From contig NJBH01000022.1 of NCBI GenBank assembly GCA_005223125.1, forward strand, positions 1-61,298: a stretch of DNA of 61,298 nucleotides, given 5' to 3'. This DNA comes from Promethearchaeota archaeon Loki_b32. Its GTDB lineage: Archaea; Asgardarchaeota; Lokiarchaeia; Sigyniarchaeales; SOKP01. Shown one piece after another: positions 56,207 through 61,298 of the stretch. Made by a program: the position numbers and the translations under genes. Below the pieces are notes generated by a model, which saw nothing but the letters and a program-made list of their open reading frames with translations, was not told the origin of the DNA and made no database searches. The stretch's first letter is position 1. The number at the start of each line of letters is the position of its first letter.

Positions 56207-56704
56207 ATGGTAATATCTAATTCAAGTCCATTAATACATCTAACCAGATTAGGAAAGATAAACTACTTGTTTAAATTGGTGAAATATATAAACATCCCTA
56301 AAGCTGTATTCGATGAGGTCGTGGTAAAAGGAAAATTTAAGAATTACTCAGAAGCTTTTACCATTGAAAGTTTTATTAAAGAAGAAAAAATTATAGTCAC
56401 TAATTTAAATTCATTTGATGAATCATTTTATCCCCCAATAGGTAGAGGAGAACTAGAATCACTTGAATTAGCTAAACAGAAAAATGAATTGTTATTAATT
56501 GATGAAAAAAAAACTCGAAATTTAGCTCAAATCCTTCAGATTGAACATCAAACAACTATAGCAACTATTTTTGAGCTTTTAATTTCAAATAATATTGATT
56601 TTTCTGAATATAAATCAAACTTAAAAAAATATGCAGAAAATAGTTGGGTTTCAGCAGATATTATCCAAGAATATATTGAGAAAGGTGAGGATTATGGGAA
56701 ATAA
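56207..56704 (+). CDS. PIN-like toxin, DUF3368 family
   Basis: 165-residue protein of the DUF3368 PIN-like group, predicted ribonuclease toxins. The first strand carries VISNSSPLIHLTRLG, with SNSSPLI in the place of the usual PIN aspartate motif. FDEVVVKG and GRGELESLELAKQKNELLLIDEKKTRNLA supply the acidic glutamate and aspartates of the active site. The gene overlaps the downstream antitoxin gene by 11 bases, a typical toxin-antitoxin arrangement, here with the toxin first. The module is flanked by ahcY 3'-end repeats. Confidence 0.85.
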   Translation: MVISNSSPLIHLTRLGKINYLFKLVKYINIPKAVFDEVVVKGKFKNYSEAFTIESFIKEEKIIVTNLNSFDESFYPPIGRGELESLELAKQKNELLLIDEKKTRNLAQILQIEHQTTIATIFELLISNNIDFSEYKSNLKKYAENSWVSADIIQEYIEKGEDYGK

Positions 56705-57014
56705 AATATCTATCATATTACTAGATGATTTGAAAGAAGAAATTGATAAGTTAAAGGAAATATATAAGGAGGAGCAATCCTCGTATATAAGAAAGTTATT
56801 ATGGAAAAGTGTTGCTCAGGAAAAATTAGATTATGCTTTAAATCAATTCATCGATGATAAAACATCTTTAGGAAAATCTGCCGAAATTGCGGGGATTTCC
56901 ATTTGGGAAATGCTCGATGAATTACATAAAAGGAATATTACATTAAAATATAAAATTTCGGAAGCAGAATTAGAAATTGAAAAGATATTAAAAAAATATA
57001 AAAAAATAGAATAA
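56694..57014 (+). CDS. UPF0175-family antitoxin
   Basis: 106 residues from ATG 56694. The N-terminal part is ribbon-helix-helix-like (ISIILLDDLKEEIDKLKEIYKEEQSSYIRKLLWKS), followed by the UPF0175 helix-turn-helix ALNQFIDDKTSLGKSAEIAGISIWEMLDEL. UPF0175 proteins pair with DUF3368 toxins, and the two genes overlap. A longer frame starting at 56631 lies within the toxin gene and is not used, since GGTGAGG precedes ATG 56694. It is convergent with ahcY, separated by seven bases. Confidence 0.85.
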   Translation: MGNKISIILLDDLKEEIDKLKEIYKEEQSSYIRKLLWKSVAQEKLDYALNQFIDDKTSLGKSAEIAGISIWEMLDELHKRNITLKYKISEAELEIEKILKKYKKIE

Positions 57015-57021
57015 ATATAGA

Positions 57022-58290
57022 TTAGGTTCCTTCTTCGTAGCCGTGGATGTAGTTATATTGCTCCTCTGTTAAAGTATCAATTTCAACTCCCATTGATTTT
57101 AATTTGAGAAATCCAACCTTGTCGTCAATGTCAATTGGAACGTCAACCATACCTGGCTTTAGGAAATCTTTATTTTTTACAATATATTCTGACATTAAAG
57201 ATTGTAAAGCGAAGGACATATCCATTACTTCACTTGGGTGCCCTTCTGATAAGACTAAATTAGCTAATCGTCCTTTTGCTAAGAGATAAACTTTCTTACC
57301 ACTAGGAAAGATTAATTCTTCTACATTCTGTCGAATTGGTTTAATTTCTTTTGAATATTCATAGAGTTCTTTTGTAGGAATTTCAATATCAAAGTGTCCA
57401 AGATTTCCAAGGATAACTCCATCCTTTAATTTATCAAATAGTTCTGTTTTAGGAGGAATAACATGCTTACATCCCGTAGCTGTTAAGATAATATCCGCAT
57501 AAGTTAGAGTATCTTCAATTGGTTTAACTGAAAATCCAGCAAATATAGCTTGTAACGCTTTTATAGAGTCAACTTCTGTGACAGTTACATTAGCACCCAA
57601 TCCCCGCGCTCTGAGTGCCATACCTGAACTACAATGCCCATATCCCGCTATAACTACATTCTTACCTGCAAAAAGAACATGCATTCCGTAAATTGCTGAA
57701 ACTATACCCTGTCCTGTTCCTAATTCATTATCAAATTGATTTTTACATCGAGCATCATTAACGGGGAAAAGTGGCACTTTCAACAGACCTTGGCTATCCA
57801 TCGCTTTAAATCTCTTAACACCTGTGGTGGTTTCTTCTTGACACGCCATAATAGTACCTGATTTTATAAGATCTTCATATTCCTGATGAGCAGTTACAAT
57901 CATATCAGCACCATCATCAATTAAGATATTAGGTTTGGCATTTAAGCACTGTCTTATACACCAATAGAATTCTTCATCCGTATTTCCGTGCCAAGCAAAA
58001 ACATTAATCCCTTCTTGTGTTAATGCTGCTGCCACATCATCTTGTGTTGATAATGGATTACTACCACAGAGATAAACTTCAGCTCCACCAGCTTTCAGAG
58101 TTCGAGCAAGATTACCAGTTTCTTTTGTTATATGCAAACAGCCGGCGATTGTTATACCTTTTAATGGTTTTTCTTTCTGAAATCTTTCACGAATTACCTT
58201 TGCAGTGACAGGCATTTTATTTTCTGCAATATATAGTGCTTCTTTTCCTTGATCAGCTAAACTTTCATCCGCTACTTTATAATTAACCAT
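57022..58290 (-). CDS. ahcY: Adenosylhomocysteinase
   Basis: 422-residue NAD-dependent enzyme that splits S-adenosylhomocysteine into adenosine and homocysteine, clearing the by-product of methylation. Features: GITIAGCLHITKETGNLARTLKAGGAEV, IDDGADMI, QEETTTGVKRF, NAD site VIAGYGHCSSGMALRARGLGANV and the ending GYEEGT. It is full length. The last 182 bases have a diverged duplicate about 1.07 kb away across the toxin-antitoxin pair, so the present 3' end may have been acquired by recombination. It is divergent from the Lrp-TBP regulator. Confidence 0.95.
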   Translation of the reverse strand: MVNYKVADESLADQGKEALYIAENKMPVTAKVIRERFQKEKPLKGITIAGCLHITKETGNLARTLKAGGAEVYLCGSNPLSTQDDVAAALTQEGINVFAWHGNTDEEFYWCIRQCLNAKPNILIDDGADMIVTAHQEYEDLIKSGTIMACQEETTTGVKRFKAMDSQGLLKVPLFPVNDARCKNQFDNELGTGQGIVSAIYGMHVLFAGKNVVIAGYGHCSSGMALRARGLGANVTVTEVDSIKALQAIFAGFSVKPIEDTLTYADIILTATGCKHVIPPKTELFDKLKDGVILGNLGHFDIEIPTKELYEYSKEIKPIRQNVEELIFPSGKKVYLLAKGRLANLVLSEGHPSEVMDMSFALQSLMSEYIVKNKDFLKPGMVDVPIDIDDKVGFLKLKSMGVEIDTLTEEQYNYIHGYEEGT

Positions 58291-58428
58291 TTCAATTTCA
58301 CTTTCTTTTTTGTAAGAATATTAATTTTAATTAATTAATAAACCTTTTTTTGGTTAGATGCAAATATTTATATATAAAATTTAACAATTAATTAATAACA
58401 ATTAAAAAATTTGCAAAATTGTAATAAT

Positions 58429-59703
58429 ATGAGTATTATTAAAGATCAGGCAGAAGTCCAAAGATTTATAAAAAATTTAAGTGGAAAAACCAAATTTATT
58501 GTTTCAAAAAATTCACGTGCGATAGGACTCTCTAGACAAACATATCAAAACAAACTTGATGGTTTGAGAGATCAAAAAATAATTACAAATTTCACTATAA
58601 ACATAAATCCAAATATTCGGCCAAATAATTTGAAATATGTGATGCTTGAAATTAAAACTAACCCAAAAGAACCTGAGTTAGTCAAAAGATTGTTAGAAAT
58701 ACCCCAATTGAGAACGTTGGATGGAATAATTGGGGACTTTTCTTTATTCGCCTTATTTATCTTTAAATCTCCTGAAGAATACTATCAGATATTAAACACA
58801 ATAGACAAAATAATGGCAAAATCATATTTTAAAAAATATCAAATTATTGAAACTATTAAGGTGTTTAAGACAAATGGAATTAGCTTGAGGAAATCAAGAA
58901 TATCATTTGAAGAAGAAATAATGGATAAATTAAAAGAAAGAAAGGTTGATGATAGCGAGAATATAGAAATCGAAATTCAAAATAAAATTGATTTAAATCA
59001 AATTGCTCAAAAAAATGCAGAAATCGAATACAATCCTGAGAAATTTCCAGGTATTGTTATGAAAATTGAAAATACTCCCACTAAAATTTTAGTTTTTTCA
59101 AATGGTAGAATTGTTCTTACTGATTTAAAGAATATAAAAAAACCCGAATTATTAATAGAGAAAATAATTATGAATATAAGGAAAACTGGGATAAAATTGG
59201 ATAAGAAAAACATTAATCAAGATTTTGAAGTAGACAATATTGATTATATAATTTTAAATATATTAAGAGATGGTCAAGGACTTAAACCAATATCCACATA
59301 TGAAATTAGAAAGATCTTTAAAGATCAACTTAAATTGGAAATTTCACAATCAACTATTCATAACAGAATTAAAAAACTTGAAAGTGAAGGTGTGATCTTG
59401 AACTATACTGTAAATTTTCATCCAAAAAAAATAGATTTTAAAGGAAAATATCTTCTTCGAATTAAACCGAAAGATCCGTCAAAATATAACGAGCTTGCTC
59501 TTAGATTGGATATGAACAAAAATATTACTGATTTATTTCGAATAGGTGAACAATATGGACTATTTGCAATAGTTAGAGTAAAGAAAATTGAAGATTATGC
59601 AACTTTTATTAGAGATCTATATAGTTCAGAAGAAATCGAAGATACTTACACAAATTTTGTTTTGGATGAGTTAAAACCATACACTAATTTCTCAGTCTTT
59701 TAA
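58429..59703 (+). CDS. Lrp/AsnC-TBP-repeat-Lrp/AsnC fusion regulator
   Basis: 424 residues from ATG 58429 (a TTG 18 bases earlier is possible). Residues 1-60 are an Lrp-type winged helix (SRQTYQNKLDGLRDQKIITN) and 65-145 the matching RAM ligand domain. Residues 178-258 read as one TATA-binding-protein repeat: IDLNQIAQ, YNPEKFPG (201-208), LVFSNGRIVLTDLKN (221-235) and a long helix. Residues 268-330 are a second winged helix (STIHNRIKKLESEGVI) and 335-424 a second RAM domain. TBP normally has two such repeats. The protein may bind DNA in an AT-rich context and respond to a small molecule. The gene is divergent from ahcY, which may be its target. Confidence 0.78.
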   Translation: MSIIKDQAEVQRFIKNLSGKTKFIVSKNSRAIGLSRQTYQNKLDGLRDQKIITNFTININPNIRPNNLKYVMLEIKTNPKEPELVKRLLEIPQLRTLDGIIGDFSLFALFIFKSPEEYYQILNTIDKIMAKSYFKKYQIIETIKVFKTNGISLRKSRISFEEEIMDKLKERKVDDSENIEIEIQNKIDLNQIAQKNAEIEYNPEKFPGIVMKIENTPTKILVFSNGRIVLTDLKNIKKPELLIEKIIMNIRKTGIKLDKKNINQDFEVDNIDYIILNILRDGQGLKPISTYEIRKIFKDQLKLEISQSTIHNRIKKLESEGVILNYTVNFHPKKIDFKGKYLLRIKPKDPSKYNELALRLDMNKNITDLFRIGEQYGLFAIVRVKKIEDYATFIRDLYSSEEIEDTYTNFVLDELKPYTNFSVF

Positions 59704-59853: not shown

Positions 59854-61298
59854 ATGACATATTTCTTTGAAGTTTTAGCCAGTAAGATCGGTTATTCAAG
59901 AATAGGGAGAATCATTTTTTCTAAAGAACGAAAATTATTTATTACTACTCCTAACTTAATCGTCCCTATAAAAAGCTCATTGATGAAACAATTTAATTTT
60001 ATTCAAGAATTTGAGAATCATGATCTATTCACAATTTCTAAAGAATTTTTTTTGAAAATTAGTTTTATACGAGATAAATTTAAAAATACTGGATTTATTT
60101 TCAACTATCCCGGGACAATTCAGAAATTCCAAGAAATATTGATAAAAAATAATAACATATTTTCTAAAGATAATATAATATCAATTGTTCCATTTAATGT
60201 TCCGACAACTAGTATTAGTAAAGATTTTGCTATAAAAGAGATAAAAAATTATCTTCTAAATGTAGAAACAATTTTAAAAAATTACCCACATCTAAATTTC
60301 GGTTTATCATTAAAAATTTTTGATTATACGGAATTATTTGATTTTTATACTCCAATAGTAAAACAATTTGAAAATATAAAAATCGTAAATTTAGTTGACC
60401 TCTTTGATAATTTAAGTAACTTTAGAAATATTCTTAAAATAATCTTCAAAATAAAAAATAATTTGGATAATAATGTAATTATTATGGTTTCTGGTAGAAT
60501 CATCCCGAAATATTATCCGTTATTAATCTACTTGGGAATAGATTTAATTGATTGTTCTTATTCCATGTTTTTATCCGCCGAAAACTTCTATGATACAATA
60601 GAATATCTATTACCAATATATAAGGTTAAATATTTCCCATGTTCCTGCGTAGCTTGTAAGGGTAAATTAAATTATCTATCAAATAATAAACATTCTGGTG
60701 AAAAAATTGATTTATTAAGTCTACATAATTTAATTACAGCATCAAATTATATGAAAAAGATCAAACAATATTTAAATTATGAAGATTATCGAGCTTTTGT
60801 AGAAAAATCATCCTTGGATGAAACAAATTTAATTTCGATTTTAAAGATATTAGATAAAGAATATTTTAATTATCTTAAATATGAAACACCGATAATACAA
60901 AAAAGTAAAAAAGTAAGATGTCTTGGTCCTTCTTCATATAATAGGCCAGATTTCCAGCATTTCAGGGAAAATACTATTAAAAATTTTGAACCTGAATCAT
61001 GGACAAGATTAATTATTTTACTACCATGTTCTTCTAAAAAACCTTATTCAAAATCAAAATCACATAAAGCATTTTATAGTGTTATAAGAAAATTTTCAGA
61101 GTTTCCAGATTTTCAAGAGTTTATTTTAACATCACCATTAGGAGTCATACCAAGACAATTAGAGAATATTTATCCGGCAAATTCTTATGATATATCCGTA
61201 ACGGGTGAATGGGACAATGAAGAAATAAATATTACCGCAGAAATGCTTATTAGAATGGTAGAAAAATACGAACCTGAGATTCCAATTCTATGTCATTT
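59854..61298 (+). CDS. arcS: Archaeosine synthase ArcS/TgtA2 (partial)
   Basis: Frame open from ATG 59854 to the window end, 481 codons visible, 3' end missing. It is related to the tRNA-guanine transglycosylase fold: FNYPGTIQKFQ, IIMVSGRIIPKYYPLLIYLGIDLIDCS and the cysteine pair FPCSCVACKGKL. The DUF5591 region holds LIILLPCSSKKPYSKSKSHKAF and LTSPLGVIPRQLENIYPANSYDI, diagnostic of ArcS. ArcS converts preQ0 at position 15 in the tRNA D loop into archaeosine. Several tRNAs in this window have D-loop insertions, so splicing would have to come before, or avoid, this step. It is too long for a plain TGT. Confidence 0.88.
   Translation, partial: MTYFFEVLASKIGYSRIGRIIFSKERKLFITTPNLIVPIKSSLMKQFNFIQEFENHDLFTISKEFFLKISFIRDKFKNTGFIFNYPGTIQKFQEILIKNNNIFSKDNIISIVPFNVPTTSISKDFAIKEIKNYLLNVETILKNYPHLNFGLSLKIFDYTELFDFYTPIVKQFENIKIVNLVDLFDNLSNFRNILKIIFKIKNNLDNNVIIMVSGRIIPKYYPLLIYLGIDLIDCSYSMFLSAENFYDTIEYLLPIYKVKYFPCSCVACKGKLNYLSNNKHSGEKIDLLSLHNLITASNYMKKIKQYLNYEDYRAFVEKSSLDETNLISILKILDKEYFNYLKYETPIIQKSKKVRCLGPSSYNRPDFQHFRENTIKNFEPESWTRLIILLPCSSKKPYSKSKSHKAFYSVIRKFSEFPDFQEFILTSPLGVIPRQLENIYPANSYDISVTGEWDNEEINITAEMLIRMVEKYEPEIPILCH

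What the first reader, a model, noticed from the sequence alone, without database searches (positions are those of the whole stretch)
58429..59703. Regulator with a single TBP repeat between two Lrp/AsnC modules
The middle 80 residues carry hallmark TBP words (YNPEKFPG, then LVFSNGRIVLTDLKN and a long helix), while both flanks are winged-helix plus RAM units. A half-TBP fused to feast/famine regulators would join promoter recognition with ligand sensing in one chain. Two copies in an Lrp-like dimer could recreate a full TBP saddle. I know of no described family with this layout.
Basis: partly seen in the sequence, partly recalled or inferred. Interest (0 to 1): 0.82.

Follow-up and report, generated by a model that had tools for sequence, protein, structure and literature searches.

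The report
Half-TBP inside a double Lrp regulator
In some Lokiarchaeia, half of the TATA-binding protein that starts transcription has been captured in the middle of a two-module metabolic gene regulator next to the SAH-hydrolase gene; this is real and selectively maintained, has apparently been lost again at least twice, and I found no earlier description of such a regulator layout.

Summary
The ORF at 58429-59703 (424 aa) is two complete Lrp/AsnC modules (winged helix + RAM) around one TBP lobe (Pfam TBP, E 2e-16, far above cut-off). AlphaFold plus Foldseek of the middle 85 residues returns only TBP chains in the top 44 hits. The same layout occurs in 13 Lokiarchaeal genomes of one family. 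About 46 relatives have the same double-Lrp gene without the lobe, at the same place (ahcY | regulator | TGT-DUF5591 gene) where checked. The tree needs three changes, best read as one capture and two losses. The lobe descends from the N-terminal lobe of the canonical Lokiarchaeal TBP. It is under purifying but relaxed selection (dN/dS 0.3-0.5 in most pairs, versus about 0.1 in the Lrp modules). It keeps the stirrup Phe F206 in 13/13 and F223 in 10/13. It has lost the start of strand S1 (Asn69/Val71 equivalents) and lacks the C-lobe TFB-binding glutamate pair. A rebuilt TBP saddle that recruits TFB is therefore unlikely; an accessory lobe touching AT-rich DNA or the initiation complex is more likely. 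A second, separate capture of the same lobe exists in genus g8. Single-lobe archaeal TBPs were known; I found no description of this fusion.

The parts
58429..59703 (+). CDS of the Lrp - TBP N-lobe - Lrp regulator, 424 aa
   Evidence: ORF; domains; 12 further orthologues with the same layout
58429..58884 (+). Lrp/AsnC module 1: winged helix (about residues 2-60) and RAM (about 74-147)
   Evidence: profile A4 vs PDB: 2cyy E 1e-8 across HTH and RAM; AsnC_trans_reg in 11 of 12 members; AF2 secondary structure
58885..58959 (+). variable, charged linker (residues 153-177), length varies widely in orthologues
   Evidence: alignment; AF2 confidence under 50 for residues 141-157
58960..59202 (+). single TBP lobe (residues 178-258), derived from the N-terminal lobe of TBP; stirrup phenylalanines F206 and F223
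   Evidence: Pfam TBP E 2.4e-16; AF2 pLDDT 84 and Foldseek TBP only; lobe tree
59227..59700 (+). Lrp/AsnC module 2: winged helix (residues 267-330) and RAM (about 344-415)
   Evidence: AsnC_trans_reg 47.1 bits, weak HTH_24/HTH_AsnC; 2cyy, 1ri7, 1i1g
58291..58428 (.). divergent promoter region shared with ahcY; conserved AT-rich block with TTAATTAATTAATAAA (about 58327-58342) and TATA-like TTTATATATAAAA (about 58367-58379); candidate operator
   Evidence: alignment of 27 intergenic regions; role inferred
57022..58290 (-). ahcY, S-adenosylhomocysteine hydrolase, divergent neighbour, conserved in the loci whose flank reaches it
   Evidence: Pfam, synteny
59854..61298 (+). TGT/DUF5591 (ArcS-like archaeosine) gene downstream, conserved neighbour, runs off the window
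   Evidence: Pfam, synteny

Best explanation
The gene encodes a local transcription regulator of the ahcY locus built as two Lrp/AsnC modules in one chain. In one lineage of one Lokiarchaeal family it captured the N-terminal lobe of the organism's own TBP, in frame, between the two modules (architecture and origin shown). The Lrp modules most likely give specific DNA binding in the ahcY-regulator intergenic region and sense an amino acid or methyl-cycle metabolite (inferred). The TBP lobe most likely works as an accessory DNA-contact lobe: held next to the promoter by the Lrp modules, its stirrup phenylalanines wedge into AT-rich minor groove near the TATA element. That changes whether real TBP can bind, without recruiting TFB itself (inferred). 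It is a tuning domain, not essential to the regulator, since it appears to have been lost twice (losses inferred from the tree). The identity as an Lrp - TBP N-lobe - Lrp fusion is near certain (about 0.97); the confidence below is for the mechanism.
For: Identity. Origin from the TBP N-lobe: all captured lobes group with N-lobes, 100/100 against C-lobes; the lobe profile hits the first repeat of canonical TBPs at about 1e-37. One gain and two losses: tree with three changes, forced by starred branches; a TBP-only clade is rejected, p-AU 1.4e-4. Conserved gene order ahcY | regulator | TGT-DUF5591 with and without the lobe. Selection: dN/dS 0.29-0.42 in the lobe for the window against L007, L008, L009 and L016, all four bootstrap intervals below 1. 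Exposed DNA-wedge residues kept: F206 13/13, Leu/Ile at the L114 position 13/13, F223 10/13, Val/Ile at V122 12/13. In other archaea, Lrp-type regulators act at TBP/TFB-bound promoters and Ptr2 touches TBP directly (PMC2995911).
Against: The start of strand S1 with Asn69 and Val71 is missing. The Thr124 position is conserved in 6 of 13 only. L015 has Glu and Lys, and L011 and L016 have Ser and Leu, at DNA-facing positions, so DNA contact cannot be universal in the family. Selection is weaker than on the Lrp modules, and for some closer pairs the interval includes 1. There are no binding data, and the ligand and the operator are not known.
Confidence: 0.42

Rival explanations
1. Protein-interaction or decoy lobe: the captured N-lobe no longer binds DNA and instead presents a TBP-like surface to, or competes with TBP for, a partner in the initiation complex or another regulator, or helps the regulator to oligomerise.
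For: Loss of part of S1 and variation at DNA-contact positions; Lrp-family activators contact TBP directly (PMC2995911); in eukaryotes the N-lobe binds many regulators such as TFIIA, Mot1 and TAF1 (PMC7221094).
Against: The exposed stirrup Phe F206 is invariant and F223 mostly kept, which a purely protein-binding lobe would not obviously need; no partner is known.
Confidence: 0.27
2. Dispensable passenger: a neutral in-frame insertion that is tolerated because the regulator works without it, and is now decaying and being lost.
For: Two apparent losses with intact double-Lrp genes; lobe dN/dS about 3-5 times that of the flanks; weak conservation of the DNA face.
Against: dN/dS is below 1 with intervals that exclude 1 for several pairs; the fold words and F206 persist in 13 genomes down to 41% identity; a second capture of the same lobe on an unrelated protein in genus g8 argues that the lobe is useful.
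Confidence: 0.19
3. One reading: two half-TBPs from an Lrp dimer come together as a complete TBP saddle that recognises a TATA box, joining promoter recognition with ligand sensing.
For: Fold is a TBP lobe; Lrp proteins dimerise and multimerise (PMC2995911); the window copy keeps F206, F223 and the L114, V122 and T124 positions.
Against: S1, which makes the central lobe-lobe junction and holds Asn69/Val71 (own knowledge), is truncated and replaced by an acidic linker; only one lobe per two Lrp modules; no C-lobe Glu pair for TFB (Asn, Ser or Asp at L3.2); several orthologues have polar or charged residues on the concave face.
Confidence: 0.1

Closest known systems
Archaeal Lrp/AsnC feast/famine regulators (PH1519/FL11, LrpA, Ptr2, Ss-LrpB)
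   Same: Both flanks are full wHTH+RAM modules and score to these structures; gene lies divergent to a metabolic gene
   Different: Two modules in one chain, and an inserted TBP lobe
TATA-binding protein, archaeal/eukaryotic
   Same: The insert has the TBP lobe sequence and fold and descends from the N-lobe of Lokiarchaeal TBP
   Different: One lobe, truncated S1, no TFB-binding C-lobe, embedded in a regulator; the genome keeps an ordinary TBP (C49) and a diverged second TBP (C39) besides
Single-lobe TBP versions in archaea (noted in PMC7221094, consistent with an earlier study cited there)
   Same: One TBP lobe in an archaeal protein
   Different: No described case found of a lobe between two Lrp modules
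Bacterial RNase HIII N-domain (DUF3378) and archaeal AlkA-type TBP-like domains
   Same: Single TBP-fold lobe attached to another function
   Different: Only weak Foldseek hits (E 0.5-0.9); ancient and very divergent, whereas this lobe is a recent derivative of true TBP

Membership tests
TBP lobe (Pfam PF00352) | Profile match above the curated cut-off | tested here: met
   59.8 bits vs 22.9, E 2.4e-16
TBP lobe (Pfam PF00352) | TBP lobe fold | tested here: met
   AF2 pLDDT 83.9; Foldseek hits 1-44 all TBP-containing, TMq 0.53-0.76
TATA-binding protein (general factor) | Two lobes in one chain | tested here: not met
   One lobe only in 13 of 13 orthologues
TATA-binding protein (general factor) | Stirrup intercalating Phe pair | tested here: inconclusive
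   F206 in 13/13, F223 in 10/13; both present in the window protein
TATA-binding protein (general factor) | C-lobe Glu at L3.2 and L3.4 for TFB binding | tested here: not met
   Asn, Ser or Asp at L3.2; Glu, Asp, Lys or Gln at L3.4; signature defined in PMC7221094
TATA-binding protein (general factor) | Binds and bends TATA DNA | not testable with these tools
   needs a binding assay
Lrp/AsnC regulators | Winged HTH plus RAM domain | tested here: met
   Both modules
Lrp/AsnC regulators | RAM-mediated dimer or multimer, amino-acid ligand | not testable with these tools
   full-length AF2 pTM 0.32, no inter-domain information
Lrp/AsnC regulators (typical layout) | Single module of about 150 aa (typical, not strictly defining) | tested here: not met
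   Tandem two-module chain, about 320 aa without the lobe

The most novel reading that the evidence does not exclude
A new kind of ligand-responsive archaeal regulator in which a domesticated lobe of the general factor TBP contacts TATA-region DNA or the initiation machinery directly, so that a metabolite sensor competes with or guides TBP within one molecule; and single TBP lobes have repeatedly been captured as modules in Lokiarchaeia.
Probability: 0.4. Interest if true: 0.8.

Novelty: new variant of a known kind. Interest (0 to 1): 0.64.

Why it matters
TBP is one of the most conserved proteins of archaea and eukaryotes and is normally used only as a two-lobe general factor. Finding its N-lobe domesticated inside a specific regulator in the archaea close to eukaryotes, captured at least twice on different proteins and apparently lost again, gives a recent and traceable case of a general transcription factor being turned into a regulatory module. 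With-lobe and lobe-less orthologues sit at the same locus, which makes the lobe's contribution directly testable by domain deletion.

Tried and rejected
Chance match or chimeric assembly: rejected by E-values and 13 independent MAGs. Different fold for 178-258: rejected. Lobe from the C-terminal repeat: rejected, all captured lobes group with N-lobes, 100/100 against C-lobes; the place of the long-branched C39 N-lobe within that group is unsure. TBP-bearing proteins as one clade: rejected, p-AU 1.4e-4. Viral or phage origin of the lobe: no relative in viral contigs or phages. Clear operator palindrome: conserved AT-rich blocks found, but base composition makes them uninformative and lobe-less loci share them, so no lobe-specific DNA site is claimed. 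Inter-domain arrangement from AF2: not interpretable (pTM 0.32). Literature searches for the layout found none; only open-licence papers were searched, and the paper I recall as the main TBP-superfamily survey was not held.

Full report
The observation. The ORF 58429-59703 (+) encodes 424 aa. Pfam finds one TBP match (59.8 bits, cut-off 22.9, E 2.4e-16) and two AsnC_trans_reg stretches, and NCBIfam shows LysM/Lrp and TBP families at significant E-values though below their equivalog cut-offs. phmmer against PDB gives archaeal TBPs at 2e-18 and PH1519 (FL11) Lrp at 4e-10. The N-terminal module is weak in single-sequence scans. As a profile it covers HTH and RAM of PH1519 at 1e-8 and aligns with the C-terminal module.

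Structure. AlphaFold2 of the full chain with 29 sequences in the alignment is only fair (pLDDT 64.8, pTM 0.32), but the middle segment is its best part (74-87 per block) and has the strand-helix-strands-helix order of a TBP lobe. Folded alone with 12 orthologues it reaches pLDDT 83.9 and pTM 0.72. Foldseek then returns only TBP-containing chains in ranks 1-44, TMq up to 0.76. The full-length model hits Lrp/AsnC structures first and TBPs next.

Relatives and origin. A scan of one genome per GTDB species with patterns from this protein returned only Lokiarchaeia. Among 79 genomes of the order, 59 carry the double-Lrp protein, all in the window's family f1 (65 genomes); 13 have the lobe and the rest lack it (alignment). 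The second refutation test, TBP words absent in orthologues, is met for most of the family but not for a well-defined group of 13. The locus is the same in both forms: divergent ahcY upstream and a TGT-DUF5591 (ArcS-like) gene downstream, wherever the contig reaches that far (L013 shows no matching downstream gene and L033 ends near the gene). A tree of the Lrp parts needs three changes of state; the five lobe-less rows L018-L022 are nested in two places inside the lobe-bearing group (starred branches). Holding all lobe-bearing rows as one clade is rejected with p-AU 1.4e-4. With many lobe-less outgroups the simplest history is one capture and two clean losses; recombination with lobe-less alleles at the same locus is an alternative to the losses. 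The branch uniting the 18 rows has support 89/95, so a single capture is likely but not proven. The carriers fall in genera g1, g2, g3, g6 and g8, which suggests some transfer between genera (inference).

A tree of TBP lobes puts every captured lobe with N-terminal lobes, 100/100 against C-lobes. The closest sequences are canonical Lokiarchaeal TBPs (for example EITEKIDLNQIARRHADVEYNPERFPGLVMRIEKPRATILIFSTGKMVVTGLR). The captured piece starts inside strand S1, so the NVVAT segment is missing.

Selection and DNA-contact residues. dN/dS in the lobe is 0.29-0.42 for the window against L007, L008, L009 and L016, with bootstrap intervals below 1. It is 0.15-0.70 over all eight pairs tested, with wide intervals for the closest pairs, against 0.06-0.20 in the Lrp modules (one search also has L010). 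So the lobe is kept, under weaker constraint. Using yeast TBP numbering from own knowledge, F99 is kept in 13/13 (F206 here), L114 as Leu/Ile in 13/13, F116 in 10/13 (F223 here), V122 as Val/Ile in 12/13 and T124 in 6/13; Asn69 and Val71 are gone. PMC7221094 names F116 (L5.1) as the near-universal DNA-binding residue and Glu at C.L3.2 and C.L3.4 as the TFB contacts. The captured lobe has the first in most members and lacks the second pair.

Mechanism. Shown: architecture, origin, conserved locus, selection, three changes of state in the tree. Inferred: the Lrp modules bind the ahcY-regulator intergenic region (58291-58428), which is conserved among near relatives and contains AT-rich blocks and a TATA-like element, and sense a methyl-cycle or amino-acid ligand. 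The lobe most likely adds a minor-groove contact next to the TATA element and so tunes TBP access. The main rivals are a protein-contact role, a tolerated passenger, and the full saddle. The saddle is least favoured because S1 is truncated, there is one lobe per two Lrp modules, and some orthologues have charged residues on the concave face.

Second capture. In genus g8, seven genomes (G132, G134, G135, G143, G146, G147, G150) carry a protein of about 320 aa with a 225-aa Lokiarchaeal N-terminal domain of unknown function and the same kind of TBP N-lobe at its C-terminus; TBP-less homologues of about 228 aa exist in G111, G118, G119, G133 and G137. N-lobe capture thus appears to have happened at least twice.

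Known or new. Single-lobe TBPs in archaea were noted in PMC7221094, and Lrp regulators that act with TBP are well known (PMC2995911). I found no description of an Lrp-TBP-Lrp chain in the open literature held here; most subscription papers were not searchable. I file it as a new variant of a known kind.

Noticed in passing
L127:1309-2271 (-), L128, L129, L130, L131, L132, L146: Second, separate fusion of a single TBP N-lobe, at the C-terminus of a ~225-aa Lokiarchaeal domain without Pfam match, in seven genomes of genus g8; TBP-less homologues in other genomes.
   Followed up: partly
G000:C2:88418-88552 (L006:1516-1695): 59-aa ORF holding only the end of a TBP C-lobe with nearly the same C-terminal tail as the canonical TBP; looks like a relic of a third TBP gene copy.
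   Followed up: partly
G000:C39:40722-41246 (L135:3693-4292, -): Very diverged second full-length TBP paralogue in addition to the ordinary one on C49.
   Followed up: no
window 56207-57014 (+): PIN-like/UPF0175 pair (toxin-antitoxin type) lying between the ArsA-type ATPase gene and ahcY; in L007 and L012 these two genes are nearly adjacent, so it looks like an insertion in this genome.
   Followed up: partly
window 58411-59703 and orthologues: Even without the lobe, the double Lrp (two modules in one chain) divergent to ahcY is a near-universal regulator of this Lokiarchaeal family (59 of 65 genomes); I found no description of it.
   Followed up: partly
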